From Nautilus pompilius (taxonomy: Eukaryota; Mollusca; Cephalopoda; Nautilida; Nautilidae): 64,000 bases of DNA. The notes below the pieces were generated by a model that saw nothing but the letters and a program-made list of their open reading frames with translations, ran no database searches and had not been told where the DNA came from. The position numbers and the translations under genes were made by a program. Where the stretch lies: positions 124,001 to 188,000 of the forward strand of contig JACATO010001735.1 in assembly GCA_018389105.1 (NCBI GenBank). The letters run 5' to 3'. Below are positions 22,750-53,947 of the stretch, one piece after another (position 1 is the stretch's first letter; each line of letters begins with the position of its first letter).

Positions 22750-22857
22750 GTCTCTCTCTCTCTCTCTGTGTGTACTCACGTCAACGTCTCTCTGTGTAAT
22801 GACGTAGTCGCTCTCTCCTTATGACGCCATCTCTCTCTCTCTCTCTCTCTCTCTTCA

Positions 22858-22891
<34 letters not shown>

Positions 22892-23071
22892 GTAAATGAC
22901 GTCATCTCTCTCTCTCTCTGTACTCCACGTCACGTCTCTCGTGTAATGACGTATCCTCTCTTCCTCCTTATGAACGCATCTCTCTCTCTCTCTCTCTCTA
23001 CTCTCTCTCTACTCACGTCAACGTCTCTCTGTGTAATGACGTAGTGTCTCTCTCCTTATGACGCCATCTCT

Positions 23072-23105
<34 letters not shown>

Positions 23106-23327
23106 GTCTCTCATCTCATCTCTCTCTCTCTCGTACTCACGTCACGTCTCTCTGTGTAATGACGTAGTGTCTCTCCTCTCCTTATGACGCCATCTCTCTC
23201 TCTCTCTCTCCTTTATGACGACGCATCTCTCTCTCTCTCTCTCTTTCTCTACTCTCTCTCTCTCGTCTCTGTACTCACGTCAACGTCTCTGGTGTAATGA
23301 CGTAGTGTCTCTCTCCTTATGACGCCA

Positions 23328-23375
<48 letters not shown>

Positions 23376-23394
23376 ATCTCTCTCACACGCTCTC

Positions 23395-23429
<35 letters not shown>

Positions 23430-23450
23430 CTGTCTGTCTGTCTGTCAGAG
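22750..23450. repeat. CRE-core minisatellite array 1, higher-order CT-rich repeat
   Basis: A long CT array is punctuated about five times by a composite unit. Each unit has a CACGTCA(A)CGTCTCT element, then TCTCTGTGTAATGACGTAGT, then CTTATGACGCCATCTCT, with CT tracts between. Units recur roughly every 110-140 bp (near 22,775, 22,900, 23,010, 23,130 and 23,270). One clean ATGACGTCAT lies near 22,898. The sequence TCTCTCTGTGTAATGACGT is shared with array 2 at 36 kb. The array ends in CA repeats and (TGTC)n at 23,405-23,445. Confidence 0.85.
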
Positions 23451-24330
23451 AGTTGAAAATGTTGTGTAAAATTATTCTAGTTTGTTTTTTGTTTTTTTGT
23501 TTTTTAAATCCATTTAGTGTAAGAGTTGGGTTTAAAGCCTGAAATGGGACAGAGCTAATCCTTGGTGTAGAGTTGGGTTTAAGACATGGTTAATTCTAGA
23601 TAGGATCAGGACTGGAGTTAGTCTCAGTATCGAGAATTGAGTACACAGTTCTAATCTAAATAAACGATGGTTATAACCAAGAGGCGCAGTTTTAAAACTG
23701 TTGGTGGGAAATGCTCTGACTTCATCATATACGAGTCGATTTCGCCGCTTCTCTGGAAGAGAAAATTCATGGAAAACCGAATTCGAATCAAATTATGTAT
23801 ATATATATATATATATAATTTTTTTTAATTTAAAAGAAAAGAAAAATAAAACTTGATTGGAATTTTTCTTGGAAAAAAAAATACCGATTTTATAATTAAA
23901 CTGGTTTTGAGTCTCGTCACCCGTGATGCTGATGTCGTACCGTGTTTTATATGTATGTAAAGTAAGCACGTACAGATCAAAATATCCGGGTGGGGGAGTG
24001 CGTGAGATACCCTGGGAACATCACTTACTAAATGATCAATGAATGGAGATCGGAGTTAGGCTTTTCCCATGGGAGTGTGAACGGGTAGTTGGGAGGGAGA
24101 GAGAAAATCACCAAGTAAACAGTCATCGTTTTAATTGAATATAGAATACGAGGCAGCGCGACTTATTACACGAAGAAGTTGTCGGGGTGTATGGATGCAC
24201 GAAGTGATGGAGAACGGGAAAGGGAGGGTGGGTGGGGCAGGAAATAATGTGTAAGTAAACTTTAAGAAAACCCGACTAAATTAACGAATATTAAAAGGAA
24301 TGGTTTTAGTTACAGACGGTGTTTCTCTCT
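23451..24330. other. Non-coding DNA with TA microsatellite
   Basis: No gene was recognised. A (TA)n stretch lies at 23,797-23,817 and T/A runs surround it. Confidence 0.4.
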
Positions 24331-24339
24331 GCCCCCCCC

Positions 24340-24434
24340 CCGGGGCCCGGGGCCGGCCAGCAGCAGCTTCGTAATTTCTGTCGCGTCTCTCGATGGTTCG
24401 AATCCCAGTCGTGTCGAAAGCCGGTTTTTTTTTT
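24340..24434 (+). repeat. tRNA-like relic with perfect B box and T-run
   Basis: GGTTCGAATCCC at 24,395-24,406 is an exact Pol III B box. About 20 bases later an uninterrupted run of eleven T residues follows, which would act as a Pol III terminator. The upstream half does not give a convincing A box or cloverleaf. A decayed tRNA or tRNA-derived SINE fragment is the best reading. Confidence 0.4.
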
Positions 24435-26990
24435 TGCTCATCGGGACCGAAAAACAGGACGACGGACGGGGGAGACTTACAACTAAATGCGACAGTGTAG
24501 AAGGTGACTGGAAGACCGCCTACCTGGATCGCGCGCGGCGGTTACCCGGGGAGGGGGTAGTTCTCTGTTTGTTTCTGTCTGATCGCGGCAAACGTGGGCC
24601 CGGCCCCTACTTCGAGGAATGGGAGCCAACAGCCGTTAGACAGAACAGCCAGTCATCTATTTTTCAACTTGTTAAAAAAAATTACCAAGTTAACTTTTTC
24701 TTCTGATTCTTATTCTACCCGCATCTCACCCCGACGTCGTGCAGAAACACACGTGACCTTTTAAACAGATTTTTTTTCTTAATTGACTTATACTTGCCGA
24801 AGACGACCCCAGCCGTCCGGCATTACCCGAAACGATCTTATCTTAGCCCCAGGCGAGGATTCCGTGTTATTGGTCTCGCACGACCGAGACACGTACGCTG
24901 TCGTTGGTATTTTTACTCAAAATTTGTGAACGGTCGAATCCCGGTCTTTCCGACAGAACGTAGATTTGAACTGCAAGAAGATGAGTAGTATAAATGTCAT
25001 CATCATCATCTCTCATATCCATAAATACTAAAACAAACCTTTTAATTTAAAGCGAACTTGAATATACGTTTAAGGAACAGAGAATATTTCGAATTTGAAA
25101 TAATTTTTTTTCAAAAATGGTGATAATCCAGGAGTTCATGTAAAGTTCTGTTGCTTCTTTCTCTAGAGTTGGGAGAAGTCAGTAAATTATCATGATTTGG
25201 TGCGCATAATAATAATAATAAAATTATAAGAAAATAGTAAATAAGTATATATACATATAAAGAATTAAATGTCAACACTAATAAAGCAAAGAAAACAATT
25301 ATATTAACTTTATTATTTTATGAAATTAATTTCTGTCATCAGTCCGCCACTTTTAATTCTTGCAACCAAGAAGGGGAGGTAACATCACACTTTAAAGTAA
25401 AAATTACCGTTATAAATATAAATGTAATATTGGGTTATCTCCCCTTCAAAAATCTATCGTTGGGATGTTGTTAAACTGCTACATGAACAAACTTGTTTGT
25501 CTGCTACATGTATTCAGAAGACTGCGAACGTTTTTTTCGATATATTTCCATTTTGGGGAAAACTACGCCACTTCCAAATTGATTAGAAGTTTCTAACGGC
25601 AAACCTACGAGTACCAATGTAATTTAATTGATTATAAGGTAGTCAAAGGGGCAGCAATCTTACGACTTATGTGGTCCCTCTCTGCTCATAACATGGGCAT
25701 CTTGTACATTTAATGACCCACACAAGACCTTCCCAAACAGCCCATCTTCTAATATTTATTTAATTTGTGACAACTCAGATCACACACGATATTGTATTAT
25801 TATGTAATCTATAATCGGCGTCAGGGTTGTTATGACAAAGGCTAATACCCTTGGCAGCGTCAAATCTCTTTGCCATTCACAAGACCGTGTATGCAATTGA
25901 TTCACATCGGCTGATGAAACCGAATTAATGCTATTTACTTTACCGTATAACTTAGTATCACCTGGAAATGTTAAGACATTTTGAGGTCAATGTCGGTATC
26001 ATTTAGGTATAACAAAAGGGCCAAGTAAAGAACCTTGCGGCACCCCACTGGTAACAGTCCTGAACTCGGGAGAAAAATTCTCTCGATCGTCTCGCACTGC
26101 TGTTTACCTTGCGAGTAGTTCTCTCTCGAGGGCAAGAAGTTCTTCGCGATTTGCCGTTGAACGTTTACGCGGGATCGTATTCGAAGGCTTAGGAAAATCC
26201 GAATAAATAACATTACTCTTGTATACTTATTTATACTACTTGCAACTTCTGTCCCCCCCCCCGAGAAACCCCAGCTGGGCTGTGAAGCGAGAACGACCAA
26301 TCTGAAATATCGAGTCTTCAACATACTAAACTCCACTGAGTTTCCTACAGTTCTGACGTTATCGCTGATTGGTCTACAACCCTGACTCTGACGTAACCGG
26401 CGAGGACAATTACTTTTGAACACAATGTCGCGGCCAGAGTAACCGCCAGAATACCGGCGGAATTTCACCAGGCGTTGATCGTTTTTACCTGTCTCAGAAT
26501 CGCCTTTCAAACCGATTTAGAAATCGACGCCTCGCCCGCTATCTGCGGCCAAACGATTTACTAATCTCGGTTTTTACTTCTAATTATTCAAATTTCAATA
26601 AGGGAATCGAATGTTAATTTCGACGCGAGTTGCTCCCTCATCATCATTATTGTTATTATTATTTTAAATATTATTCGAGTTCGCGATTACCTCACCGACA
26701 AAGAGTCGATTTTCAAACTCCCAGCCTTCAGCGGAGTTGTTTTTGTTGTTGTTGTTTTTCTGAACTCCGAATGACAAATCGCTCAGAGTCGGTGCGAATT
26801 GCATTTGTGTCTAGACAAAAGTGCATCCTGCAGCTAAGGTCTCTGCCCGTCTCTGATTGGTCGGAAATCGTCTAATCGCGGAGCAGGAGTCAGGTGCCCG
26901 TTATTTGCATATGAAATATATATATACACACACACAGAGAGAGAAAAGCCAGAATCGGGTTGCGTCGTACGATTTCTTCAAATAATTGAC
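24435..26990. other. Non-coding DNA, nothing recognised
   Basis: Mixed AT- and GC-rich sequence. The longest open frame (minus, 25,971-26,510, 179 codons) shows no domain and has no splice or start support, so it is not called. An octamer ATTTGCAT lies at 26,903-26,910, next to a TA-rich stretch and CA/GA microsatellites. Confidence 0.4.
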
Positions 26991-27079
26991 GCGCATCAAA
27001 GAAGAGAGAGAGAGAGAGAGAGAGCCCGTTTATAAACCCGAAGCCTGGTCCGGGTGATTCCACTGTAACTCGCAGAGCG

Positions 27080-27213
27080 GGAACCGAGACGCTTAAAATC
27101 CGCGAGGCGTGGAAGCGGGGGACAGAGCCGATAATTGCGAGAGAGTCGCCTCCCCACCGCCGCCCTATGCCGGTCTCTCAAGCGCACCTGCTCTACCACC
27201 GAGCTGTGCTCCG
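27080..27213 (-). repeat. tRNA-like relic
   Basis: On the minus strand GGAGCACAGCTCGGTGGTAGAGCAGG (27,188-27,213, first 20 bases most informative) matches a tRNA 5' half with an A box. A degenerate B box (GGAGGCGACTC) follows at the right distance. The 3' half does not close an acceptor stem. It is a tRNA pseudogene or SINE head. Confidence 0.45.
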
Positions 27214-30200
27214 AAAGATGTCGCTTCGACCGTTTTTGAAAATTTAATTATGGAGATTATCGAAATGGATATTGTATAAAGATGTCCCGTCGTTCTTTAC
27301 TGTTGAGCGTGTAGGGCGAATATTTGCTGGTGTATGTACCCCGTTTGAAGGGCATGAAGAAGAGGTTCTGTTGTTTTAAGTAGAACAAAAGCAATCTCAG
27401 GTTTTAGGGTTACGTCGTCGTCGTTGAGACAACAGCAACAACGTCAATCCATATTTAAAGATGCACCGTCACTGTCTGTGAACTATGTATGCTTAAGATG
27501 CGTTCTGCTTTCCCTGAATAACGTTTATTCTGACCCCCCCACCTACCGCGCGAACCTTATTTAGCCAAATGTTTAATTTAAATTAGTTGCTGCTACTAGG
27601 AACCGCGGAGCCATCGCGGCTTGTGCGAGGTACCCAGAAAGAAAATGTCTGCCTATCAGTTTGGCTAGCAAAAGCAAAAACTGGCTTTGCATTGAACGAC
27701 CGCTGGTGATTTATTCCATTTCGGTTTACGGTTTAATCGCGAAAGTTCCGTATGCCAACCCCATACCGCTACTTTTTCCCATTTCCTAGTGTTGTCCCCT
27801 AACTGTGGATACTCGCCGAATATATCCGTTACTGCGTACAGGCTTAAAACTCTCAATTTCTTTGAAAATCGTTCCTTCAGCGCTGACAACCAAACTACGC
27901 AAAAATTTAATATCTTTCATCCTCGGCATACCGTAGACCCCTTAAAGGTCTGTCAACAATATCTTTCCTTTAATTTGCACTTCACTAATTCCCGGCAGTA
28001 TTTCGAACTCGCGCGATATTTGTTGGCATCACTCGGTGGCTGTCGGTAGTGTACCGGAAAAGTTCGGTCGGACAGGGTTACGCATTATGTCCGCCGCCGT
28101 TAGACCGGTCGGTAAAGTAAAGAAATTCGTCAAAGAATGCAGACGGGAATTTAGAACGTTTTTTTTTCTTCTTCTTCGCTTCTTTAATGGAAGAAAACGT
28201 GTTATCTATCATTTGTGTAGTCAATCAGCTCTGCCCCCGACCTTGTGTTGCGGGATTTGTTGTCTCTAATCAAAGCCGAGAGATCGGAATGCTCCCCGCT
28301 GGGAGATCTTCAGCGAAGGGGTCGTAACCCGAGTCGCTTTGCCGACGATTACGCCGCGAATATAATTCGCGGGAGGGGGGTTCGGGTGGGAAGCAGAACA
28401 GCTGGAATTCGCGGAGTCCTTCCTCGACTATCGGTCGTATGTTCTACACCGCCGGAGAGCACCGAAAATGAAAGGCGGCCGCCGATGCCCGGTCTCGTGA
28501 GGCGACAGGTTCGCTGTTACCTTTATCTCCCGACTTGGCCCCTCCGCTAAGGAATTTCCCTTGCAAATTCTTGGTAGAAGACGAAACCTTGAAGTAGCAC
28601 CCAGGCGCCTTCAGTTAAGAATTAACCAGATAACTAACTAATTAATTAAGTCTGCCACGCCGTAATTTATAGTTAAAACCCTAAACAGGGTCGGAGTTTC
28701 ATCTCTGTGGACCGAGATGCCGTCGGTAACCGTAGCTGATTACATCACCGCCAACCCCTCTGATATTTGTCTGACCTGTGGTCATAACGTTAATTGGCGA
28801 ATGATTCTTCCGTTCGATGATCGATGAACGAGTGGCCAGCACCAAAACCAATTGTCTCGCGAACGCGGAGATTTTACAATTAAGGGACGAGATTGGAACC
28901 CGGAAGGTAGAACTGGAGAGTTGAGAGAGAGCCCGCGCCCGAAGGTGTCGTCAGTCAGGGTTGGTTGGTCATGGATGCCGGAGCCACGGAGGAGATAGAT
29001 TAAGGCGAAATATACTCGGATGCGACCGAGACGACTGGGAATAATAACCGTGTAGCTTCCGTGATATTTTTTTTTTTTTTTTTTTTGCAAAGGGCGATAA
29101 CCGATTTTGGAATTTACAAAAAAAAAAAAAAAAACATACTTTTCCGTGTTTCTTTACGACCCGAAGACATCTCATACGTGGCTTTAATTTCTGGTTTAAC
29201 TCTCCGTTTTGACCCGAAAGTCTCGCGAGCTGCTCCCGTCCGGGCAACGGGGGAAAGAATATTTTTCACGTACGTATAACCAACCAGCGGCTTCTAAGAT
29301 GGATCTCTGCCAAGCGCGGATAAATTCTTTTCTGGTTTTATGTTGTTGTTGTTGTTTCCGTTCTTTTCTTTCCCTTTATTTATTTATTTATTTATTTATT
29401 TTGTCTGTGTTAAATACCAGACTTGCAAACGTCGTTTTCGTCCCTCCTCCGTCGCGGAGGCTGGCGGATGGATGGACGGTTGTCCGATGAAGTTGGGGCG
29501 GACGGGGGGGGGTGAGAGCTCGACGACGATACTATAACTGCGCAGCACTTTCTCGGCTGTTGGCGGCGGCCCCTCTCTCCATCTCCATCTCTCTCTCCAT
29601 CTCCATCTCTCTCTCTCTCCTTCAGCCCTGGCAGGGTGATAAAGATTATATTCCACAGCGACGACTCCGCCCGTCTCGCTACGCCACCGGCCCAGAGGGG
29701 AGGGAGCTGATGTCGGGTAAACAAGCCACGGCTGCTGAAGCTAGGCGGACGCTTCGGACAGGGGGTGGACAGGAAAAAAAAAATCGCACACACACACACA
29801 CACACGAATATATGTGTATAAGGTACATTGGCTGCGGGGCTTCCCGTGAACGTGGGATCCGTGTTGGCGGCGAGATCCCACGGAATAAAAGGTCAGGGGG
29901 CCCCACATTCTCAGCATGGCTCGGTGGAAATTCATCAGCAGACCACTGCTAGTTGTCAGATAGAGAAAAATCCCCCATTTTTTTTACCCCCCCCTCTCTA
30001 ATTCTTCTACTCGCTTTATTGCGGCCCGAGCTGCCGATGTAGGAATTATTTTATTACCAGAAATAATATATCGCGTGCGGACGAGACTCGTTGATAATCC
30101 GTTTTCAGAAAGTTGGGGGGACAACAACAAACAAACGAAACTTCTGGAAGTCGCCAGCCAGACCTGCCTCGGCGATCACTCGTTTGTGCGTCCCCTTATC

Positions 30201-31100
30201 GGCACACGTCGCCGAGTATTTCGTCGGGGTGAAAAGCCCCGCCTCCCGCGAGCTGATGACGACAGCAACCCGGCCCGGGGGGGGGTTGGGGAAGGGGAAG
30301 GGGCGCCCCGCCCCATGGGTTGTTTCGAATCTCAGTCGAGGGACTTTTGGTTGTCAGTGACATCTCAGTAATCGAGGCGGAGGGGGACTCCCCTTTATAG
30401 AAACCCCACTTCGTCTTTATCTGGGGGGGGGGGGTTTGATCGGCCCCGGCCTAACGAAACTCGGCGGGTGGGTGGGTGCCAGCTCGGTGTGAAAGTATTG
30501 CTCCCTAGAAAGTGTCTCGCCAATGAGAGTTAATAAGCGGAGTGGAATTTGTTCGCAGCTGTCCATGTCGAGCAGATCCTGACTAAGAACCGTTGAGCGA
30601 TTAATACAACACGATCGAGTTACCAATCAACTGGGATCTCACCATCTTTTTTAAAAAATGTTTTGTTTTTGTTTGCCTCCCTCCTCGAAAAGCTGTTCGG
30701 ACTGCAGTGGCGGAGTATTTAATCAGTCCACCAGCCTCCCCAAACGGTCTAACCGCGGCATTCATTATTCCAACATACCCCTCTCCCTCCCAGGTGCCCA
30801 GGTAAGTGGCGTTTCAACTCTCCCATATTTATATACGTGGAAATCGGTCTGAATAGTCGGGTCTCTCTTGATAAATTCAAACAACGAACCGTCTTGTATC
30901 CGATGCCGCTTTCCGGGCATCCCAAGCTGGCCACGGGTTCGGGTGTCACCCCCCCCCTCCACTTCCTAGCTTTCCTGTCCCGGCTAGTGTTCCGGAGATA
31001 GGGGACACAGCAACCAACCAACTTATACGACTTCTGTTGGTGAACTCTATACAAATTTATCCCCTGGTGGTGAATTGTTGCATTTGATTTTCGAGGACAA
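27214..31100. other. CpG-rich non-coding DNA
   Basis: No gene family was recognised. The block has G or C runs, a T20 and A17 pair (29,067-29,134), (TTTA)n at 29,378-29,401, CT/ATCTC repeats at 29,576-29,622, (CA)n at 29,787-29,805 and many CpGs. A short plus frame from 28,087 (MSAAVRPVGKVKKFVKECRR) runs into a T-rich stretch and has no recognised relative. Confidence 0.4.
29067..29134. repeat. T20 and A17 runs as an inverted pair
   Basis: Twenty T residues and seventeen A residues are separated by 31 bases. They could fold into a hairpin, or mark two retroposon tails in opposite orientation. No repeat body was recognised beside them. Confidence 0.6.
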
Positions 31101-31590
31101 TAAAAGAGGGAGAGAGAGAAGAGATGGAGAGAAAGAGAAAGACAGATGGAGAGAGAGGAGGAGGGAGGGAGAGGAAAAGAAAGACAGATAGAGGGAGGGA
31201 GAGGAAAAGAAAGACAGATGGAGGGAGAGAGAGAGATGGAGGGAGAGAGAGATGGAGGGAGAGAGAGAAAAGAAAGACAGATGGAGGGAGGGAGAGAGAT
31301 GGAGGGAGAGAGAGAAAAGAAAGACAGATAGAGGGAGGGAGAGAGATGGAGGGAGAGAGAGAAAAGAAAGACAGATGGAGGAGGAGGGAGAGAGAGAGAG
31401 AGAAAAGAAAGACAGATAGAGGGAGGGAGAGAGAGATGGAGGGAGAGAGAAAAGAAAGACAGATGGAGGGAGAGAGAGAGAGAGAGAGAGAGAAAAGAAA
31501 GACAGATGAGAGAGAGAGAGATGGAGGGAGGGAGAGAGAGAGAGAGAGAGAGAAAAGAAAGACAGATAGAGGGAGGGAGAGAGAGAGATA
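31101..31590. repeat. GA-rich minisatellite with GAAAGACAGA motif
   Basis: About twelve irregular units of roughly 30-55 bp contain AAAAGAAAGACAGAT(A/G)GAGGG followed by GAGAGAGATGGAGGG blocks. Both strands stay open for hundreds of bases: the minus frame repeats SLPPSICLSF and the plus frame repeats ERKRKTDG. These are consequences of the stop-poor repeat and not genes. Confidence 0.9.
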
Positions 31591-35920: not shown

Positions 35921-35927
35921 TCTGTAA

Positions 35928-36249
35928 TGACGTCATATCCCTCTCTATGTAACGACGTCATATCTCTCTCTATAATGACGTCATATCTATCTGTAATGAC
36001 GTCATATCTCTCTGTAATGACGTCATATCTATCTGTAATGACGTCATATTTCTCTCTGTGTAATGACGTCAGATCTCTCTCTGTGTAATGACGTCATACC
36101 TCTCTCTGTGTAATGACGTCATATCCCCCTCTGTGTAATGACGTCATATCCCCCTCTGTGTAATGACGTCATACCTCTCTCTGTGTAATGACGTCATATC
36201 CCTCTCTGTGTAATGACGTCATATCCCCCCCTCTCTCTCTCTCTCTCTC
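35928..36249. repeat. CRE-core minisatellite array 2 (13 units)
   Basis: Thirteen units of about 20-25 bp follow the form CTCTGTGTAATGACGTCATA. Twelve carry a perfect TGACGTCA palindrome and one, near 35,953, has CGACGTCA. Later units have a regular 25-bp period. The array ends in a CT run (36,232-36,249). TGACGTCA is the full CREB/ATF site. Regulatory use is inference. The reverse complement matches the core of arrays 3 and 4. Confidence 0.9.
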
Positions 36250-37975
36250 CAAAAAGCCGGGCTTTTTTCTTGCAGAAGCAGGAATTGGAACACCAAGTGT
36301 TACGGCCTAGGCAGCGCTCTCTGGCGGCTAACAGCGGCACTATTACGCTTGTTTTCGGTCTCCAGTGCCAGGTACCGGTGCACACGACCATGACAGCGGT
36401 GGTCGGAATCTGTGGCTCGGAGTTTCTTCAAGTACTTCACCCGAAGTTTAAGGAGTGACTCGTGGTCGGGAATGTTTCACACACACCGCGGGACTTCGCA
36501 CCGAATCCAGCCAAGGCGCCAGCAAAGCTCTCTCTCTCTCTCTTACACTAGAACAGCAACAACAGCCTAGTATAATAACATGCGGTTTTTACAGAGTTTG
36601 GGAGTGTCGTTGTATAAGTTCTTTTTTACGGTCCTGGTGGGATCGGAATAACCAAACAAGTCGTTCTGCTTCTTTCTTCCTCTGTACGCCGGATTATGTA
36701 TAGAAAGCAGACAGGAAGCCGCGAGCCCTACTTCATCGGGTTCTCGTTTTGTTTTTGTTTTTTTTAGAAATTCCCCCGATACCGCGCGAGTCTTCTCAAG
36801 CCCTTGGCTGCTCCTCTGTGTGCCGAGTCCCGTCTGGGCACCACTCGGTGTCTGCTGGGTGCGCCCACCTGAAACACCGCCGGTCACGCACTCGCTCAGA
36901 GCTGGGGTCGCCACCACTGTTCGGCGTTCTCGTTTGCGTGGATGCGGTTCCTTCCGCATCACTGCGCTGCTGTCGTCCCCACTCTGTTATTGTTGTTGTT
37001 GCTTTGTTTCGTATGAACTCTGTCCCCCTCCTCGTGTTTCGTGCTATGGCGAAGGAGTGGGGGAGAGAAGGAAATGGTACAATCTGTCTCCTCGTATCCG
37101 CTGAAAACGTTGCACCCGGAGACTACAACTTAATTAAGCCATTCTACGGCCATCATAGTAAACTATCCGTCTTATTCGCCGAGACCCTGTCCCCCGTCCT
37201 CTACCTACCTTTTCTTTCTTTCTTCTATTCATTGGTGCACGAACGGTCCAACACCTATCAACCAAAAAAAAAAAAAAACAAACAAAACACTTGGCATTTC
37301 AAAGGATCTAATGACTTACCTGCGCTACAATTCCAGGTATCCTTCAATAGCCGTCTGGGAGATCTTTGACCCCGCAAGATGCCCTCCCCACCGCGCAAGT
37401 GAACAGATATCTGGCGGAATGTTTCCAGGCAACAAAAACAAAAGGATTTGGCGGCGGTGCGAGTTCTCTTGGCGTACGGCTGAGGACGAGTTCCCCGTTT
37501 TTACCATCTTGAGATGGAGTCATTAAAATTCTTGTTCCTGGTGCAATGAAAATCTCTCTCTCTTTGGAAAAAAAAAAGCCCTCAATTTTACTCCCCTGAC
37601 TGACGTTTTGTTTGTTTCTGCGCCCTGTAAATGTCAGAACGATGGTTTATTATGTTGAAAATGGATGTTCACCTTTGTAACGCAAAATGACCACCTGTTA
37701 AATTGTTCTAAACAGAACGTAACAGTTTAAGGCAACACCGACCGTGTGTGGCCCTGTCAAACCCACTACTGCCCTCTACTAAGAAGGGCTGATAACTCTC
37801 GATTCTTAAAGTAAATAAATAAATGTTGGAAATCCGTGTTCGAAACTCTGCCATGGATTCACGTTAACGTGTCCTGTCTGATTTTCGAGGTGTATCGAAT
37901 GTTTCAAACGTAAATGATCCGGCCGCATTGGTATGTATTTATTTATAAGTAAATAGCTGACGCATTTTTCCTGAT
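36250..37975. other. Non-coding DNA, nothing recognised
   Basis: An open frame of 206 codons (plus, 36,749-37,369) has no domain, begins in a T run and passes through a 15-A homopolymer, so it is not called. Simple repeats are short. Confidence 0.4.
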
Positions 37976-39771: not shown

Positions 39772-40636
39772 CATCATTTTTTAGAGTAATTGATTACTTT
39801 TTAAAAAAAAAATCTTCATTTTTATTCTTGCTCTCAAATTGAAAACGCAGCGTCACGTGTTATTCCAAACCAATCAGATGCGCCAGTCTCCGTTTCTGCG
39901 GTTCTACAGGGGAAAAAAAAAAACACAAACAAAAAAAAAAACTAGGTCGAGTTCCGGATTCCAACGTAGATGATAATGTAAAAAGGGCGCTCCACCTTAA
40001 TGAACAAGTCCTCCACACCTTCGAGCAAAAATTCTTCCCTGGCTTACCTACTACTTCTCCCCCCCCCTCGAGCTTTATGAATCATTTCTAACGTGACTGG
40101 GAAGAAGAAAACAAATGTTTCAGAAAGAAAGACCCCGTAGGACTTTGTACTTATAATGTAATTCATTCTAAACACGTGATACCGCTCACCCAGACTTAGG
40201 TTTGCTCCGCATAAACTTCTTCTCTAAGACCTGTCCGGCTTCTGAGGTAAACTCGAAATTTATGATATCATAGGTCACCCACTTCTTTCTCTCCTTCCTC
40301 TCTTTCTTTCTTTCTTTTTTTTTTTTTTTTAAATTTCGCATTCCTGAACGTTGAACAATATGTATGTGGAAAGGTGGGCATTATTTACCTTCTAGTGTAA
40401 TATAGCTCGCCCTAAAATTCTACCAGGTAAAATGTCCCGGCGGTGCACAGCGACAATGTCGTCTCATATGATAATGTATATTAATTCAGGAACTCATGTG
40501 ACTTCAGACATTAATATTATACGGCTGTGGTTTGGCTTATCTTTTCTCCGTTTTCCCCTTTTCAAATATTTCATGTCCAAAAGCAAAAGGAGGGAGGGAG
40601 AGAGAGGTATTTTTATAACTAAATTCCTCCGATGGT
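39772..40636. other. Non-coding DNA
   Basis: A and T homopolymers and a CTTT run (40,295-40,320) are present. No gene was recognised. Confidence 0.4.
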
Positions 40637-41104
40637 AACCGGTTACATCTTACGACCGTTCTTATTAATGCTCTAAGCGACATCTACAACGGCCATTTGG
40701 TTTTTAACCGGTTACATCTTACGACCGTTCTTGTTAATGCTCTAAGCGACATCTACAACGGCCATTTGGTTTTTAACCGGTTACATCTTACGACCGTTCT
40801 TGTTAATGCTCTAAGCGACATCTACAACGGCCATTTGGTTTCTAACCGGTTACATCTTACGACCGTTCTTGTTAATGCTCTAAGCGACATCTACAACGGC
40901 CATTTGGTTTTTAACCGGTTACATCTTACGACCGTTCTTGTTAATGCTCTAAGCGACATCTACAACGGCCATTTGGTTTCTAACCGGTTACATCTTACGA
41001 CCGTTCTTGTTAATGCTCTAAGCGACATCTACAACGGCCATTTGGTTTCTAACCGGTTACATCTTACGACCGTTCTTGCTAATGCTCTAAGTGACATCTA
41101 CAAA
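40637..41104. repeat. 69-bp minisatellite, about 6.7 units
   Basis: Units start at 40,641, 40,710, 40,779, 40,848, 40,917, 40,986 and 41,055. The last is truncated after about 50 bases. Units are nearly identical (AACCGGTTACATCTTACGAC...). A T/C variant at the junction (TTTTTAACC or TTTCTAACC) alternates among copies. Because 69 is a multiple of three, one frame stays open through all units and spells a 23-residue repeat containing NRLHLTTVLVNALSDIYNGH. A long open frame is expected from such a repeat, so coding is not claimed. Confidence 0.95.
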
Positions 41105-41309
41105 CTTTCAAGTTTCATTTGCTTTCGGTAGAAGTCTTCTTAAAAGGACACTGACGTGCACAGTTTAACGTTTGCCACTGCTGTTCGTGATCCGTTTTCA
41201 GTGCTTGGAATTATTGTTAAAGGGATATAGATATTTATGTTTTTTTCTTTAGCTTATTTTAAAACATTGATGCCGTTACCCTGTTTTCGTCCACTTCATT
41301 ATACAAGGC

Positions 41310-43562: not shown

Positions 43563-43722
43563 TGGAGAGAGAGAGATGACGTCAGTACAGAGAGGAGAGA
43601 GAGAGAGATGACGTCAGTACAGAGAAAAGAGAGAGAGATGACGTCAGTACAGAGAGGAGAGAGAGAGATGACGTCAGTACAGAGAGGAGAGAGAGAGAGA
43701 TGACGTCAGTACAGAGAGAAAG
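43563..43722. repeat. CRE-core minisatellite array 3 (5 units)
   Basis: Five units of about 27-33 bp have the form GAGAGATGACGTCAGTACAGAGAG. All five carry a perfect TGACGTCA palindrome followed by GTACAGAG. Orientation is GA on the plus strand, opposite to array 2. Confidence 0.9.
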
Positions 43723-45715: not shown

Positions 45716-45724
45716 TCTCACTAA

Positions 45725-45788
45725 AACAGAGAGAGAGATGGAGATGGAGAGAGAGAGAGCGAGAGAGATGGAGATGGAGAGAGATGGA

Positions 45789-45843
<55 letters not shown>

Positions 45844-45970
45844 TGGAGAGAGAGAGAGCGAGAGAGAGAGATGGAGAGAGAGCGAGAGAGAGATGGAGAT
45901 GGAGAGAGAGCGAGAGAGATGGAGAGAGAGAGAGCGAGAGAGATGGAGATGGAGAGAGCGAGAGAGATGA
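45725..45970. repeat. GA-rich minisatellite (GAGATGGAGATGGA)
   Basis: Irregular GAGAGAGA tracts are interspersed with GATGGAGATGG and GAGCGAGA. Open frames on both strands are low-complexity and not genes. Confidence 0.9.
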
Positions 45971-47374
45971 GGCGGCTGCTGCTGCTGCAAGATATTTCCA
46001 TAGAGTTGGAATAGATTTTTGTCGATGCTCTGTCGGATCTCGAATAGTGTATTTCTTTTTCTTCGCCGAGGAGGTAATTAATGGATGTTACTGCGGTGAT
46101 TCGCTGAAGCCGATAGCCCCATCGCAGCGGAAGGCGACGTCGAAAGTCTTACTTCCTGTCGTGCCCCCCCCCCCCACGTTCGCAGACTTTGTAATCCTTC
46201 AAAAATTCTACCCAGGGACCGCCCGGTTATAACAGCCAAAAAATGTCCCGCGCCTCTCTTTCGTTTCCTTTCGCTTCGATTAAAGCCGAAAGGCGATCGG
46301 TGGTTACCCGTGTGTCTCACGGGTTCCTTGTGAACTGGGGCACGCGGAAGTCGCCTAATATCTGCGGAATTTTCTGGTAACATATTTGCTGGAGAGAAAC
46401 AAACAAACGACATGGAAGGAGGAGAAGAGAAGAATCTGTCCAAAACCGCCGGAGTAGACACTATAAGTATCCTATCGCTTGGGTTAAATGCGAAAATATT
46501 GTATCCCACCAACTGATAACATTCGTGCGGTTACTGTTTCTTCTTTTTCACTTTCCCACTTATGCTCCTGTTAATTATTACACGGACCGATAGATTCCCC
46601 CCCCCCGAGTTGTGTCGGTGGGAATTTTAGCCCCATCGTATTCCACAGATAACTTTTCTGCAGGACTACTGCATTAATCTAAAATGTATTTCTCTCTAAA
46701 AGGCGATCTGATGCGGACAAAGTGCCGAAGATCTGAAAAGATGCGGAAGATTAATTGATGACATTTGCTTATTTTGCGATGTTGCTCGGCTCTCTGTTAA
46801 ATGCCATGAAAAAAAACAACAACAACACAAGACGACGAAAACGAAGAAGATGTCTTTGAGACACGATTGGTGCTGGTTAAGCATCTTCGGTATTTCGCAG
46901 TGAAATTGTCACTGAAGTTCGATCACGATGCTTGGTGCCAGTATCATCTCGCTTTTAGTGACCACGAAGGCAACTCTGGCAGTGTTTAACCTATGTGAAG
47001 GCGTACATAAGCCGCTCAACTGACTTAAAACACAGCGTCATTCCTGAAGGATAGCAAATTCCGAGTGGATAATTTAGCCCTACACACCAGTCAGAACCAA
47101 ACAGAAATCGCCTCATTATGTATATCTATTAGCCTGCGAGTGAGTTGTCGTCTCGGATTTCTCACTTCCTCTTAGCAGTGGGAGATCTAGCAAAGAAAAT
47201 TCTCATGATCAGTTCCCATATCGTCTGGTCTTGTCTTGACACCATTACAACTTGTTCAATCGGCACAAGGCTATGGCTTTTGGCTCTCGTTGCGTGCGCA
47301 CCCGACGGGACATTTCCGGCTTCTATGAACGCACACATATATAAATACATATATCTGGTACAAGAAATTGTCTT

Positions 47375-47411
<37 letters not shown>

Positions 47412-47914
47412 TTTTTAAACAGTTTCTCGTACCAGGCCGTTCCAACTTTTGATATCTGCTTACATAATACAAATATACCAGGCAATTGTACTCGGTGACG
47501 GAAAAACTTACTTTAATTGTCTTATGCTGCAAGAACTCACATATGGATATCTTTCGAGGTTAGCGGGTGACTGGCAGAGACCAATTCCGAGAGAAAAGGG
47601 GAGAGACTCATTGGATGACATATATTTTAAAAAAGAAGGCGACGAGGGATTGCATTTGTAATTCAGCTGGAGAAACGGCTCGTGTACATTATGACACATT
47701 TGTCGTCACTCCCAAACACTGAACATTCCAAGTACGTGACAAAGAAAGAAATAATGGAATTAAGTAAATTACGTATATTTTTCATATATTAGTTTTATAG
47801 AAGCAATTTGTTGTTTTACGAACAACTTCATATTTGATGATTTAATTAAAATCCCATAAAGGAAGTTCATTTAATTTACTCTTCCGAAGTAAGGATAGGA
47901 TTCTTTCATCATCA

Positions 47915-47956
<42 letters not shown>

Positions 47957-48540
47957 TATTATTATTATTATTATTAAAGGTCATCAATCACACGGACCGC
48001 GTGCTCCCGAAGAAATTCTTTCTCTAGACTGCTGTTTATTTTTCAAATTGTAGCATCTCATGATCTATCAAGAGACGGGACGAGGGTAAATATGTTGATG
48101 CTGCGCAAAGATGTTTCAGACCGGCCGGCGGATGGACTGTGTCCGTGTCGTTTCAGCAAAGAATCATGGGAGGGCGGAAGGAAACTGAGGCGTGACCGCG
48201 GCTTCTGTAATCGGCTCCTCGTCACCGTCAAGACAGTTTCCATCCATCTCTGGTATCGGCCGGGTCTGGGATGGCATCGTTCTGTCCCGGGTTACATGGA
48301 ACCCGTCATGGAGCTTTCGTGAACGGTCCAGATCTCAGGAATAGTAAAAGCGAGACCGGACGTAATCTGTTTTCCAACGTGAGGGGGGGAGTCGTGGCCG
48401 GTCTCCTCCCCAACTCTGATATGGGGGAGGGGGTTTAGACGAGCAGGTGGTCGGCGGCACCTCGAATTATTTAAACACGTACTGCTTAGACATTAAGAAG
48501 CTACCCATTTATCCGAAAGTTAGTTATGTTTGGCGCATGC
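45971..48540. other. Non-coding DNA with microsatellites
   Basis: No gene was recognised. A (GT)n lies at 47,380-47,409 and an (ATT)n of about 70 bases at 47,908-47,976. A 117-codon frame at 47,145-47,498 passes through the GT array and is not called. Confidence 0.4.
47908..47976. repeat. (ATT)n microsatellite
   Basis: About 22 ATT units with one interruption. Confidence 0.95.
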
Positions 48541-48552
48541 GGAGGGAATTTT

Positions 48553-49161
48553 CACGTGACAGACATATATTCTAATATATGTGGAGATTTTAGAAACTAG
48601 GGTGGAGGGACGGGAAGGACCCAATACTGCCAGGGAAAGGGATTGGGGTCGGGGTACTAATTTCCGTCACGTGAGGAAACGATCGGATCTTCAGCACGGA
48701 AAGCAATAACAGGATTGCTAAATCCTGGGGCCCGGGTTCTGGTTTCTCGAGACCGTAGATCGATCGCCAAATTGCAGTAAAGGCCACGCGACGAGAGCTG
48801 TTTTCCGTGTCGTTTCCGGTGAGGGTGCACCACCCGGGACCCAACCCCCGAACCCCTGCCGGGGCCAGAGATGCAGCACCGCACAACAGTCGTAGCCGAA
48901 GTGGTTCCGCGAGGCGAACCCGGCGGAGCTGCTGTCCTCACGTCCGGTACCAGCCGGCCGTTCTTCATTCCCGCCCCGACTTCGGACCGCAAAGGGCTTC
49001 CTGGCTGGGGGATTTCCACTCTTGGCCAATTGCATACTATCCGGGCTCCCAAGAAAACGCCAGCTCATTCGCGATATGTCCGACCCGTCCTCTCGTCCGG
49101 GAAGTGCTCCTCCGGCTTCCATTGTGAACACGTGACAGCCGCCGGACGGTCGGTCCACGTG
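48553..49161. promoter_or_regulatory. CpG-rich region with four CACGTG E-boxes
   Basis: Perfect CACGTG palindromes lie at 48,553, 48,668, 49,129 and 49,156, each in a TCACGTGA, CACGTGAC or similar context. The last two are 27 bases apart. The surrounding 48.3-49.5 kb is GC- and CpG-rich. Such sites bind bHLH-ZIP factors (USF, MITF/TFE) and are typical of promoters. No downstream coding exon was identified. A 262-codon minus-strand frame across 48,718-49,506 is probably a by-product of high GC. Confidence 0.4.
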
Positions 49162-49575
49162 ACGCGGTCGATTTAAACGATAAGCGCGCGAACCATTTCG
49201 GATGGGAGGATCTCTCTCTCTCTCTGGTGCCGAGGACGATTGATTTCCCGCCGGCGGCCGGTTGTCCACCGCGTCCCCGTCGGAAGAATATACGGGTTTT
49301 CGACTGGGCTTTCCGCAGGTAAACAGGTGTTTGTCTCTTTTACCTGTGCTGGCTGGCCACCGAGGCTTCCTCCCAGCGACGCCCCGGCTGTCACTGGTCG
49401 CAGGGAGGTTAGGGTGGGGAGACTCGATGACCGCACAACCCCCCCGGAAATTTCGAATTTTTGGTGAGTTCCGTCCAATAAACCCTTTGGCGACAATTAA
49501 AACCAATAAGGTTTAATTAATGATAGCAGTAAGTTTACTGGGGCCATTCCGTGGCCGTAAGGCGAATGCCAAAGT

Positions 49576-49775
49576 TCAGTTGATGGAAGATGTCTTCCTT
49601 CCTAAGTGTATAGGATGTTCCAAGCAGAAGATTTTCCCTGGGGCTTCTGTAGTAGTGTACATTTCTTTCTGATCTGTTAGCAGAGAAGTCTTCAGCTTCT
49701 TCACCTTGATGATGATGATGATATCTTGTCTATTCACTATGTCTGTATGTACTCGCATGTCCCACAGGTAACTGT
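49576..49775 (-). mobile_element. LINE C-terminal-like remnant
   Basis: The minus-strand frame reads YLWDMRVHTDIVNRQDIIII and then KVKKLKTSLLTD. This resembles the segment after the reverse transcriptase in many non-LTR elements ('WD..V.TD......RPDIVV.DK..K..LLID'). Only this block was recognised. The adjoining 49,780-50,050 may belong to the same copy. No intact reverse transcriptase was seen. Confidence 0.4.
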
Positions 49776-50815
49776 CACTTCAGTGTTTCCCAGCACTGTG
49801 ATCTCACAATTTCCATGTGACTGATATATATGGCAGTCTCAGCAAATCTATCAGCAGGTATACATACCAAGGCTGCGTCTTGTCTGTGTGTACATTCACT
49901 CCATCCCGAAATGAGATTTTGAGGCCTTTTATTTCTTCACATTCATTGCACATTCTTAGTCTGTGTCATTTCTTAATCTTGTTCTGGCACGTTATGGTGC
50001 TCTGGTCTTGCACTTCTGTTAACAACCCTTCTGTTTCTCCGCTATATTATTAATAATAATAATATCACAAATTAATATCAGAATTACACTGGAGTTCCAC
50101 AAACAACATGTATCTATTCTGGAGGTAAAGTTGACTCAATCCTGCCTACTTGCAGTTGAAACCGATTTCAAGAATTCCATACAGGGAGCAATGGACACTT
50201 TACTTTATTTCACTGCACCCTGAATATTTAATTTCTATCACGATTTAAGATGAGTATTATAATCAATAATTTCTTTTTTCTTTTTTTTTTTTAATAGGAA
50301 AGAAAATTGAAATTTAAAGTGGATATGCTATACTGTGCAAAAACCCTGATTTCTAGTGAGTAGTGATGCAGAAGGACAGAGGAAAAAATCAGATGGGGAA
50401 CAGACATTTCGTCTTTTGATGAATCATTGATTGGTAAGTTCTGTTTTATTGATACTTCTCAATTAATAAATCCATTCAGCTCTGAAGGAGTAATGAAAAA
50501 ATATTATATTAAAAGTGTTTCTTGAGATGTCTTCAGGTCTGTGCACCTTTTTTTAAACATTGTATTCTGGAATGAGACTTAGGGAAAAATACACCTGAGG
50601 CTGTATGGTCAAAGAGGAGCACTGGAAGAAGACAGCACCAGAAACAATGCTTCAGGAATTACAATCCTCTTTGCTCCATCACTGTGTTAACGGTAAAAAA
50701 ATTCCTTTTGCAACCTTTGTGATACTGAGGCTGGCATCTTTATGGCTACGATTCAGAAACATGAATAGATGGCCATAGGCATAGGGTTAGATATAGAAAA
50801 TCAAGGCAGAAGTTG
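49776..50815. other. AT-rich non-coding DNA
   Basis: A possible small exon lies at 50,356-50,432, with acceptor TTTCTAG before and donor GTAAGT after. Its only long frame (SSDAEGQRKKSDGEQ) stops just before the donor, so it is not called as coding. Nothing else was recognised. Confidence 0.4.
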
Positions 50816-51182
50816 TTTTTTTTTTTATAGCTTATTTACGTTTAGCTGCCTGTATTGCATAGAAAGTGAATATTTTCCACAGTATGGAGAACACTGGTCT
50901 CTCGGACTGGTTGGCATCTGCCAGAGGAAGCGCCTCGCGTGATCTCATCAAGCAGAGGATAACAGGGTGCAGAGAGGTTAGTCCAATACCTGCTGCAGAG
51001 AGTCCATATGAGAACTTTCTTTCGTATTTCAGATGTGGGAGGAAACCCATAGGGCAGGCTGGTGAAGAAGAGCAAGAAGGAATCATGCTGGAAAGGTATG
51101 CCGAGTCAACCTAGCCTCAACTGGGATTCAAACGCAGACCCTCAGTCTTACTGGTCTACCAGCACATTACCCTCTTAGGCAG
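50816..51182 (-). repeat. tRNA-derived SINE, old copy (CCCACATCT family)
   Basis: On the minus strand the head reads TGCTGGTAGACCAGTAAGAC (A-box area) followed by GCGTTTGAATCCCAG (B box). The body carries GGGTTTCCTCCCACATCT (51,031-51,048). The element ends in a TATAAAAAAAAAAC tail at about 50,816. Its head and motif match the copies at 38.6 and 57.2 kb. Confidence 0.6.
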
Positions 51183-52005
51183 GTTGGTAGCAATATCTAG
51201 TTAAGCTTGAAAAGAAAAATTCCCATTATTTTTCATGTTTCCTCCTCTCTTGGTTTCTAATGGAATATAAAGGATTCTGAAATATGGTTATCTATACAGT
51301 TAGTATTTTTTTTGCTAATATATATTGTGTTGATGGTTATCGTTTGAATTTATTTTCTTTTGTGTTTAACTGAAAATTCTTTGGGTCTGTGAAACTAAAA
51401 AGGAAGCAGGAATATCGTTATTCCATTTACTTGTTTTGCTTTAACCCTCCACATACATGCCAGATTTTACCTTCTACTACCCCAGCCTTAGTTAGTATTT
51501 GCATTGAACTTACTGGCTATGTCATCTTAGTCAACGCATTCATAATGCAAAACATAGAATACTAGGATTTGTTGTTACGCGAGGGCATACTAATGAGGAA
51601 AGTCACAGCCCCTACAGCTCAGCCTTTGCTGAGTAATGCAGACTTGCAGGGTAGAAAGGGTACAAATGCAGCCCAGGTAGAATGCAGAGGGTTAATTACA
51701 GTAGCAGAGAGAATGTCCTCAATAACAACTTCACTGATTTGTTTTGTCAGCTAAGTTGTAAACAAAATATTTTTCTAAGATTAAACATAATTATTATAAA
51801 ATGTAGCCACATTTCTTTTTAAAAAAATGTATAGTAAACTCAAAAAATTTACTGGGACACAATACATTTGTCATATTTTGAAAATTTACAGCATTCACAG
51901 ACAAAATCAGCCTAGGGAATGATATCTTATTGATGTCTACCAATATCCTAAAGAATCATGAATACAAAGAAGCAACATTCTGGGTGCTGCTAATGGCTAC
52001 ACTCC
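51183..52005. other. AT-rich non-coding DNA
   Basis: No coding region or repeat family was recognised. Confidence 0.4.
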
Positions 52006-52009
52006 CACT

Positions 52010-52450
52010 TTTATTAAAATGCCACCCTTTGATTTAATAACTATTTTGCATACTCTGGGCATATGATTCAAAAGTTTTAGTAAATAAATTTTTTTTGTGT
52101 GACTGGCAACTAACATAGACACTAACCCTCGCTACCCAAAAAAGAGCTCAAACTTCTGATTCATCAGACCACAAGACTTGTCACTGTTGTGGAATCTGCT
52201 GAACACCTCTCTCTGGCCATATTGCATTTTCTTGATGGAGTGGTTTCCAGACTGCTACACAGTCTTTGATACCAGAAACTTTCAGGCAACACCTGAATGT
52301 TAACTTGTACACCACAGATCTGGTCAAAGAGCCGGGTTTTGAGACATCAGTTGTGGAGAGATGCAATCCTGATAAACTTGTTCTGGCAATAGTTGTTGCT
52401 CTTTTGCAGCCACACCTCTTTCTGTTGAAATACTGCTAGTCTGAATCCTT
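52010..52450 (-). mobile_element. Tc1-like transposase fragment
   Basis: On the minus strand a short open stretch is followed by SLWSDES-like sequence (VLWSDESEV near 52,145-52,180). This is the first catalytic Asp block of Tc1 transposases. Upstream, NKFIRIASLHNRC (near 52,340-52,390) fits the linker after the DNA-binding domain. The plus-strand text CTTCTGATTCATCAGACCAC is the familiar reverse complement of this block. The N-terminal and C-terminal parts are missing or decayed. Array 4 begins about 15 bases beyond the fragment. Confidence 0.6.
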
Positions 52451-52464
52451 TTCTTCGAAATTAG

Positions 52465-53947
52465 GGAGAGGGAGAGAGAAATGGCATTACAGAGGGAGGG
52501 AGGGATGGAGAGATGACATCATTACAGAGGGAGGGCGGGAGGGAGGGAGAGATGACATCATTACAGAGGGAGGGATGGAGGGAGAGATGACATCATTACA
52601 GAGGGATGGAGAGATGACATCATTACAGAAGGAGGGAGAGATGACATCATTACAGAGGGAGGGAGGGTGACATCATTACAGAGGGAGGGAGAGAGAGATG
52701 ACATCATTACAGAGGGAGGGAGAGAGAGATGACATCATTACAGAGGGAGGGAGGGAGGGAGAGATGACATCATTAGAGATGACGTCATTACAGAGGGAGG
52801 GCGGGGAGAGATGACATCATTACAGAGGGAGGGAGAGAGAGATGACATCATTACAGGAGGGGGGCGAGAGAGAGATGACATCATTACAGGAGGGAGGGAG
52901 AGAGAGATGACATCATTACAGGAGGGAGGGAGAGAGAGATGACATCATTACAGAGGGAGGGAGGGCGGGCAGAGGACATCATTACAGCGGGAGGGAGGGA
53001 GAGATGACATCATTACAGAGGGAGGGAGGGAGAGATGACATCATTACAGAGGGCGGGAAAGATGACATCATTCCAGAGGGAGAGAGAGATGACCATCTTA
53101 CAGAGGGAGAGAGAGATGACATTATTACAGGAGGGAGGGAGAGAGAGATGACATCATTACAGGAGGGAGGGAGAGAGAGATGACATCATTACAGGAGGGA
53201 GGGAGAGAGAGATGGACATCATTAAGGAGGGCGGGAGAGATGACATCATTACAGAGGGAGGGAGAGATGACATCATTACAGAGGGAGGGAGAGATGACAT
53301 CATTACAGAGGGAGGGAGAGTTGACATTATACAGGAGGGAGGGAGAGAGAGATGACATCATTACAGGAGGGAGGGAGAGAGAGAGATGACATCATTACAG
53401 GAGGGAGGGAGAGAGAGAGATGACATCATTGCAGGAGGGAGGGAGAGAGAGAGAGGGAGCGAGAGAGATGACATCATTACAGGAGGAGGGAGCGGAGAGA
53501 GATGACACTCATTACAGGAGGGAGGGAGAGAGAGAGAGATGACATCATTACAGTAGGGGGGAGGGAGAGAGATGACATCATTACAGGAGGGGTGAGGGAG
53601 AGAGATGACATCATTACAGGAGGGGGGAGGGAGAGAGATGCCATCATTACAGGAGGGAGGGCGGGGAGAGAGATGACATCATTACAGGAGGGGGAGGGAG
53701 GAGAGCGAGAGATGACATCATTACAGGAGGGAGGGAGGGAGAGAGATGACATCATTACAGGAGGGAGGGAGGGAGAGAGATGACATCATTACAGGAGGGA
53801 GGGAGGGAGAGAGATGACATCATTACAGGAGGGAGGGAGGGAGAGAGATGACATCATTACAGGAGGGAGGGAGAGAGAGAGATGACATCATTACAGGAGA
53901 GATGACATCATTAGAGATGACATCATTACAGGAGGGAGGGAGAGAGA
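52465..53947. repeat. CRE-like minisatellite array 4 (about 47 units)
   Basis: About 47 units of roughly 20-45 bp follow the form GAGAGATGACATCATTACAG(A)GGAGGGAG. The core is TGACATCAT nearly throughout. One unit near 52,785 has TGACGTCAT. Units in the first half tend to read TTACAGAGGGAGG and those in the second half TTACAGGAGGGAGG, so at least two subtypes were amplified in blocks. Long open frames (MTSLQEGG- and SPSLCNDVI-type repeats) arise from the repeat and are not genes. Confidence 0.95.

What the first reader, a model, noticed from the sequence alone, without database searches (positions are those of the whole stretch)
22750..53947. Four dispersed arrays built on one CRE/ATF-palindrome minisatellite
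Arrays at 22.75-23.45, 35.93-36.25, 43.56-43.72 and 52.47-53.95 kb share a core of (G)TAATGACGTCAT set in GA/CT tracts. They occur in both orientations with different unit lengths and subtypes. TCTCTCTGTGTAATGACGT is common to arrays 1 and 2. The reverse complement of the array 2 unit (ATGACGTCATTACACAGAGA) overlaps the array 3 and 4 units (ATGACRTCAKTACAGAGRG). TGACGTCA is the full-consensus CREB/ATF site and GA repeats bind GAGA-type factors, so each array could be a dense bZIP landing platform, decoy or nucleosome-free element. Four arrays in 31 kb are hard to explain as unrelated microsatellites. Common descent is inferred from the shared flanks. Regulatory function is inference only.
Basis: partly seen in the sequence, partly recalled or inferred. 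Interest (0 to 1): 0.75.

Follow-up and report, generated by a model that had tools for sequence, protein, structure and literature searches.

The report
Genome-wide scattered CRE-core minisatellite family
The four repeat arrays belong to one family of short tandem repeats scattered over this large genome, with no transposon seen carrying it where we looked, and its core happens to be a well-known protein-binding and recombination-hotspot word.

Summary
In detail: four arrays share the 12-bp core TGACGTCA[G/T]TAC (or a decayed form) between GA spacers, far beyond chance. The window's own 727.6-Mb genome holds the 16-mer GAGATGACGTCATTAC 2,627 times; the reversed word occurs 0 times. So the window shows members of a large dispersed minisatellite family. 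Three word controls: the core of a neighbouring GA minisatellite is nearly private (15 matches, 7 in its own array); the symmetric CRE without the TAC tail occurs at one place; the CRE followed directly by GA occurs 185 times. Flanks of 29 sampled arrays are unrelated, and 18 flanks of nine arrays matched only themselves genome-wide, so no transposon carrier was seen. The non-palindromic tail is at least as conserved as the CRE: common descent, no sign of selection for bZIP binding. Best account: a 12-bp seed copied between GA tracts by recombination, then expanded locally. The 12-mer also lies in the inverted repeats of a transposon-like family, a possible seed. It contains the yeast M26/CRE meiotic-hotspot word, an untested link. 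Regulatory function is unshown; the organism was not identified.

The parts
22751..23408 (-). Array 1: CT/GA tract with degenerate cores (CACTACGTCATTACAC, ATGGCGTCATAAG, CGTTGACGTGAG); one full TGACGTCA
35921..36248 (-). Array 2: about 13 units of mostly 21-25 bp, core ATATGACGTCATTACACAGAGAG on the minus strand, 12 full TGACGTCA
43565..43719 (+). Array 3: 5 units of 30-32 bp, core TGACGTCAGTAC
52463..53947 (+). Array 4: about 43 units of mostly 27-34 bp, core TGACATCATTAC (CpG-less form); one unit at 52780 keeps TGACGTCA
7257..7269 (+). Single ATGACGTCATAAC outside the arrays (may be chance)

Best explanation
The arrays are members of one dispersed minisatellite family. SHOWN: a 12-bp asymmetric core, TGACGTCA[G/T]TAC, lies in GA tracts at very many places of this genome, in 1 to more than 40 tandem copies per place, on both strands, with unrelated flanks and, for the nine arrays tested, in single-copy surroundings. 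INFERRED: a single core unit enters a pre-existing GA (CT) microsatellite by recombination-type copying (ectopic gene conversion, or template switching during break repair) from another core-bearing GA tract, using GA homology on both sides. The unit then multiplies locally by slippage or unequal exchange, which gives locus-specific spacers and subtypes. The first seed may have come from the inverted repeat of a transposon-like family that carries the same 12-mer. Whether the CRE/M26 character of the core helps it spread (for example by attracting meiotic breaks) is open.
For: Genome counts: GAGATGACGTCATTAC 1154+1473, reversed control 0+0; GAGATGACGTCATTACAG 797+1063, control 0+0; GAGATGACATCATTACAG 197+181, control 0+0. 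Specificity: the core word of the GA minisatellite at 31.1-31.6 kb of the same window has 15 matches, 7 in its own array, reversed control 9. Unit anatomy: 584 islands in 30 arrays (26 in 20 targeted stretches plus 4 in the window); the commonest long islands are TGACGTCAGTAC (39 copies, 12 arrays) and TGACGTCATTAC (39 copies, 13 arrays). Flanks: 58 flanks of 200 bp give 2 weak pairs, shuffled controls 0-2; 18 flanks of 90 bp from 9 arrays hit only their own places genome-wide at E <= 1e-5. No excess of target-site duplication: mean longest direct repeat at the edges 5.9 against 5.4 in re-paired controls, n = 29. One- and two-unit states inside GA tracts (L014 3724; L017 3951) look like seeds. 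GA tracts without cores are denser in the CpG-rich compartment where most sampled arrays lie: 43 in 185 kb against 4 in 98 kb of CpG-poor DNA, while CA tracts are not (22 against 12). Units differ less within arrays (1.31 of 12 positions) than between (1.87). Candidate seed: the inverted repeat with GAGATGACGTCATTACTGACTTTAAT.
Against: No copying event was seen directly: no empty or pre-insertion site was found. An insertion into GA tracts by an element that targets GA/TC microsatellites would leave the same anatomy, its target duplication hidden in the GA. The transposon-like match was found through a search for the same 16-mer, and its end word is exact in few places (0 mismatches in 3 of 82 matches at up to 3 mismatches, reversed control 31). 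The sampled arrays are not random: 20 stretches were chosen through an exact CpG-containing word. Twelve arbitrary stretches (80 kb) held no array, only five single weak core matches; only about 10 kb of them was CpG-rich, and on their own they do not repeat the GA-tract bias (0 in 10 kb CpG-rich, 3 in 62 kb CpG-poor).
Confidence: 0.5

Rival explanations
1. Mobile-element delivery. A transposon or retrotransposon with a preference for GA/TC microsatellites (recalled, from no call: Kibi-type LINEs target TC repeats), or a Helentron-like element as in oysters, deposits very short copies, leaving only the 12-bp piece in the tract.
For: The same 12-mer sits at the inner end of the inverted repeats of a dispersed transposon-like family (41 matches from 40 of 107 candidates scored). 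In Crassostrea, dispersed satellite-like arrays are carried by non-autonomous Helentrons (PMC7492417, abstract and first part of Results). Lepidopteran RTE elements spread microsatellites (PMC2887409, abstract).
Against: No conserved left or right flank; hairpins (7-bp stem, 3-8 loop, within 80 bp) next to 0 of 29 right flanks and 1 of 29 left flanks; no excess of target duplication. By eye, no longer element body beside the core in 13 of the 14 places printed; the fourteenth, L010, is the transposon-like element itself.
Confidence: 0.25
2. Recombination-hotspot drive. ATGACGTCAT is the M26/CRE word that attracts meiotic recombination in two yeasts through ATF/CREB proteins; arrays would be break hotspots whose repair copies the core into other GA tracts and expands it.
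For: The M26 word tested in budding yeast is ATGACGTCAT (PMC3534124, passages), and ATGACGT bound by Atf1-Pcr1 makes the ade6-M26 hotspot of fission yeast (PMC2677671, passages). On either strand, 214 of 390 unit matches keep ATGACGT. Poly-purine tracts have been linked to hotspots (PMC1543642, title and start of abstract in a search listing).
Against: No recombination data; M26 activity is known here only from yeasts. The non-CRE tail is as conserved as the CRE, and array 4 has expanded with TGACATCA. Break-initiating alleles are usually lost, not gained, by repair (established knowledge, recalled).
Confidence: 0.12
3. Selected bZIP (CREB/ATF) binding platforms or decoys.
For: Full-consensus CRE in arrays 2 and 3 and in 200 of 390 unit matches. 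The CRE positions are more conserved than the GA spacer positions next to the core (mean mismatch about 6.5% against about 15%). 28 of 30 arrays lie in CpG-rich DNA, though most were ascertained with a CpG-containing word.
Against: Mean mismatch about 6.5% over the eight CRE positions against about 3.3% over the TACA tail. The symmetric CRE between GA and CT occurs at one place. The CRE is degenerate in array 1 and CpG-less in array 4. No gene context was found (10 of 10 frames scanned without a Pfam match, out of 670 frames of 45 aa or more).
Confidence: 0.08
4. Independent chance origin of similar words in GA tracts.
For: None beyond the presence of many GA tracts.
Against: 2,627 against 0 reversed; the nearly private control minisatellite; CRE-in-GA words without the tail are far rarer.
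Confidence: 0.01

Closest known systems
Cg_HINE Helentrons of Crassostrea gigas (PMC7492417; abstract and first part of Results read)
   Same: Short tandem arrays of related repeats dispersed over an invertebrate genome
   Different: There the monomers are mostly 140-180 bp and flank consensus sequences with Helentron substructures could be derived for the arrays; here the unit is about 20-35 bp and the sampled flanks are unrelated
Microsatellite families from RTE retrotransposons in Lepidoptera (PMC2887409; abstract read)
   Same: Simple repeats spread to many places
   Different: There one flank is the 3' part of the retrotransposon; here neither flank is shared in the sample
M26/CRE meiotic hotspot of fission yeast, also active in budding yeast (PMC3534124, PMC2677671; passages read)
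   Same: Core word ATGACGTCAT / ATGACGT
   Different: M26 is a single functional site; no recombination activity is known for these arrays
Classical hypervariable minisatellites (recalled, from no call)
   Same: Short core, purine-rich spacer, local expansion
   Different: Those share weak core similarity among loci; here a precise 12-mer recurs at very many unlinked GA tracts

Membership tests
Dispersed minisatellite family | Same unit in tandem at many unlinked places | tested here: met
Dispersed minisatellite family | Unit shared beyond simple-sequence composition | tested here: met
   12-bp asymmetric core; reversed words 0; nearly private control core
Helentron/HINE-borne tandem repeats | Conserved flanking modules next to the arrays | tested here: not met
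   58 flanks of 29 arrays compared; 18 flanks of 9 arrays matched only themselves genome-wide
Helentron/HINE-borne tandem repeats | Hairpin next to the array on the 3' side | tested here: not met
   0 of 29 right flanks, 1 of 29 left flanks
TIR transposon or retrotransposon insertion | Target-site duplication at the edges | tested here: inconclusive
   No excess over re-paired controls, n = 29; one hidden inside the GA could not be seen
CREB/ATF regulatory element | CRE positions more constrained than the rest of the repeated core | tested here: not met
   CRE about 6.5% mismatch, TACA tail about 3.3%, GA spacer positions about 15%
CREB/ATF regulatory element | Protein binding or effect on a gene | not testable with these tools
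   no ChIP, ATAC or expression data
M26/CRE meiotic hotspot | ATGACGT word present | tested here: met
   214 of 390 unit matches on either strand; word from PMC2677671 and PMC3534124
M26/CRE meiotic hotspot | Raised meiotic breaks or recombination | not testable with these tools
   no recombination map

The most novel reading that the evidence does not exclude
A 12-bp seed, possibly born at the end of a transposon's inverted repeat, has become a naked selfish sequence. It needs no transposon body and moves between GA microsatellites by break repair, helped by its own CRE/M26 word, which marks each new array as a break hotspot.
Probability: 0.08. Interest if true: 0.85.

Novelty: new variant of a known kind. 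Interest (0 to 1): 0.5.

Why it matters
The dispersed tandem-repeat families described in the papers I saw were carried by transposons. A family with a precise 12-bp core in unique DNA and no carrier in sight would be a clean natural case for studying how very short repeats travel, and its CRE/M26 core gives a direct test of whether a transcription-factor hotspot word drives repeat spread. It also warns that counts of CRE sites in such a genome are inflated by one repeat family.

Tried and rejected
Helentron/HINE carrier: rejected for the sampled arrays. Target-site duplications: none in excess. Selection on the CRE within the core: not seen. Chance: rejected. Gene context: 10 chosen reading frames scanned against Pfam, 0 with a match at E <= 0.01; the other 660 frames of 45 aa or more were not scanned. 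No Rfam match at gathering score and no tRNA. A link between CpG-poor surroundings and CpG-less cores looked attractive in the window: arrays 1-3 (28 of 28 detected units keep the CpG) lie in DNA with CpG o/e near 1, and array 4 (42 of 43 without it) in DNA near 0.2. It did not hold across the 30 sampled arrays (Spearman 0.01, p = 0.94; sample ascertained with a CpG word); the array in L023 keeps the CpG in 11 of 16 units in CpG-poor DNA. Of 4 distinct places found with the CpG-less word, 3 were CpG-rich. It is kept only as a remark on the window. Literature: seven searches. By title and start of abstract, none of the papers listed describes this repeat; some searches listed only the best 20 of 22, 20 of 176 and 12 of 943 papers. 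One search looked for six core words anywhere in the full text and found 2 papers, on T-cell differentiation and on colorectal cancer. The 21-mer GAGATGACGTCAKTACAGAGA has 0 exact matches in genome contigs and in viral contigs, which hold prokaryote and viral sequence. Organism not identified; a search for a mollusc-type haemocyanin domain did not complete.
Full report
What is there. The window holds four arrays at 22751-23408, 35921-36248, 43565-43719 and 52463-53947. Read in one sense, they share a core TGACGTCA[G/T]TAC, or a decayed form of it, set in GA spacers; arrays 1 and 2 are on the minus strand, 3 and 4 on the plus strand. TGACGTCA occurs 20 times against 0.80 expected, and ATGACRTCATTAC with up to two mismatches 81 times against 2.72. 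The full CRE is regular only in arrays 2 and 3; array 1 is degenerate, and array 4 has TGACATCA or another CpG-less form in 42 of 43 detected units. Two other GA arrays of the window, 31105-31588 and 45728-45969, carry other words.

How far it reaches. The window is C1657:124001-188000 of an assembly of 727,640,739 bases in 2,558 contigs. GAGATGACGTCATTAC occurs 1,154 + 1,473 times, and 0 + 0 times read backwards. About 0.3 would be expected from length alone (my arithmetic). The 18-mer ending in ACAG occurs 797 + 1,063 times, and its CpG-less form 197 + 181 times, both with 0 reversed. The first 100 places listed fall into about 32 clusters (counted by hand; one of them is the transposon-like L010), which would scale to roughly 840 clusters. 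This is probably a low figure, because only one of the four arrays in the window (array 4, at 52776-52791) contains the exact word. Arrays are not everywhere: 12 arbitrary stretches (80 kb) held none, only five single weak core matches.

Is it the CRE or the lineage? Four comparisons. The core word of the GA minisatellite at 31.1-31.6 kb has 15 matches, 7 in its own array, with 9 for the reversed word: being an island in a GA array does not by itself make a word dispersed. The symmetric CRE with GA on one side and CT on the other occurs at one place (such a word does not fit inside one GA tract, so it is the weaker control). The CRE followed directly by GA occurs 76 + 109 times, 14-fold fewer than with the TTAC tail, and many of the listed places are themselves clustered, so they may be variants of the same family. 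In 390 unit matches from 29 arrays, mean mismatch is about 6.5% over the eight CRE positions, about 3.3% over TACA and about 15% over the other GA positions (my averages from its table; detection allowed 4 mismatches in 20). What spread is one 12-bp asymmetric lineage, not CRE sites as such.

Anatomy of a place. I fetched 20 stretches around exact matches (not random, and not all the clusters listed) and, with the window, recognised 30 arrays of three or more units. Splitting at purine runs, without using the core letters, gave 584 islands; TGACGTCAGTAC (39 copies, 12 arrays), TGACGTCATTAC (39, 13) and TGACATCATTAC (34, 2) lead the long ones. Units differ at 1.31 of 12 positions within arrays and 1.87 between. 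Single and double units inside GA tracts exist (L014, L017). Edges are GA on both sides in most of the 29 arrays printed. There is no clear excess of direct repeats at the edges (5.9 against 5.4, n = 29). Flanks are not shared (2 weak pairs among 58 flanks, 0-2 in shuffles). Eighteen 90-bp flanks from nine arrays found only themselves in the whole genome at E <= 1e-5 (the tool scores only its best candidates, and I sent 9 of the 12 arrays prepared).

Surroundings. The genome is a mosaic of CpG-poor and CpG-rich stretches. In the window, CpG o/e is 0.78-1.28 in the 2-kb bins from 12 to 50 kb, and 0.17-0.70 at both ends except one bin of 0.90. Among 12 arbitrary stretches 9 had o/e at or below 0.32, one 0.59, two 0.90 and 1.07. 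Core-free GA tracts are denser in the CpG-rich part (43 in 185 kb against 4 in 98 kb), CA tracts are not (22 against 12). This count leans on the window and the targeted stretches; the arbitrary stretches alone gave 0 in 10 kb CpG-rich and 3 in 62 kb CpG-poor. 28 of 30 arrays are in CpG-rich bins, but most were found through a word that contains CpG. Arrays 1-3 keep the CpG in CpG-rich DNA and array 4 has lost it in CpG-poor DNA; this neat pattern did not hold across the 30 arrays (Spearman 0.01, p = 0.94), and 3 of 4 places found by the CpG-less word are CpG-rich.

A possible seed. One targeted place, L010, is not an array. The word lies in each of two inverted copies of a repeat of about 209 bp, about 1.8 kb apart (86% alike). 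A genome search with one copy gave 41 matches from 40 scored of 107 candidates, several in facing pairs about 0.15 to 2.5 kb apart: probably a family of DNA transposons with terminal inverted repeats (inference; no transposase or target duplication was looked for). Its inner end is TGAYGTCATTACTGACTTTAAT: 82 places with up to 3 mismatches, 31 for the reversed word; 3 places exact, 15 with one mismatch, 13 of these 15 being the CpG-to-TpG change. The family thus carries the core 12-mer, usually in decayed form. This was found through the same word, so coincidence is not excluded, but it is the only candidate source seen.

How it most likely works. Shown: one lineage, many places, GA on both sides, unrelated flanks, local amplification. 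Inferred: copying of a core between GA tracts during repair, with local expansion. Rivals are delivery by a microsatellite-targeting element (GA would hide its target duplication), hotspot drive through the M26/CRE word (ATGACGTCAT is the M26 word tested in PMC3534124, passages), and selected bZIP platforms, which gain no support here.

Known relatives. Dispersed tandem repeats in oyster are carried by Helentrons with conserved flanks (PMC7492417, abstract and first part of Results), and lepidopteran microsatellite families by RTE elements (PMC2887409, abstract). The present family differs in lacking any shared flank in the sample. Seven full-text searches listed no paper that, by title and start of abstract, describes it (three of the lists were cut).

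Noticed in passing
L010:3417-3625 and 5435-5645 (C2:713416-715644): A transposon-like family with ~209-bp inverted repeats; its inner end TGAYGTCATTACTGACTTTAAT contains the minisatellite's 12-mer, mostly as the CpG-decayed TGATGTCATTAC.
   Followed up: partly
window 12000-50000 against 1-12000 and 50000-64000: Sharp change of CpG o/e from 0.17-0.70 (one bin 0.90) to 0.78-1.28, with higher GC in most of the CpG-rich part; a similar contrast appears between other stretches of the genome.
   Followed up: partly
window 31105-31588: GA minisatellite with word AGAAAAGAAAGACAGA, private to this place apart from 8 scattered matches genome-wide.
   Followed up: yes
window 45728-45969: GA array with AGAGATGGAGAG units and no CRE core.
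   Followed up: no
window 40636-41103: Nearly identical 69-bp tandem repeat (6.8 copies, 98% matches) inside a stop-free stretch of 170 aa (40619-41131).
   Followed up: no
window 14063-14325 and 55968-56229: Two 95%-identical copies of a 263-bp repeat.
   Followed up: no
window 16412-16728: Two tandem 162-bp copies, 96% matches.
   Followed up: no
window 36251-36267: Perfect hairpin AAAAAGCC-G-GGCTTTTT directly beside array 2; none of the other 57 array flanks examined has a hairpin of 7-bp stem within 80 bp.
   Followed up: no
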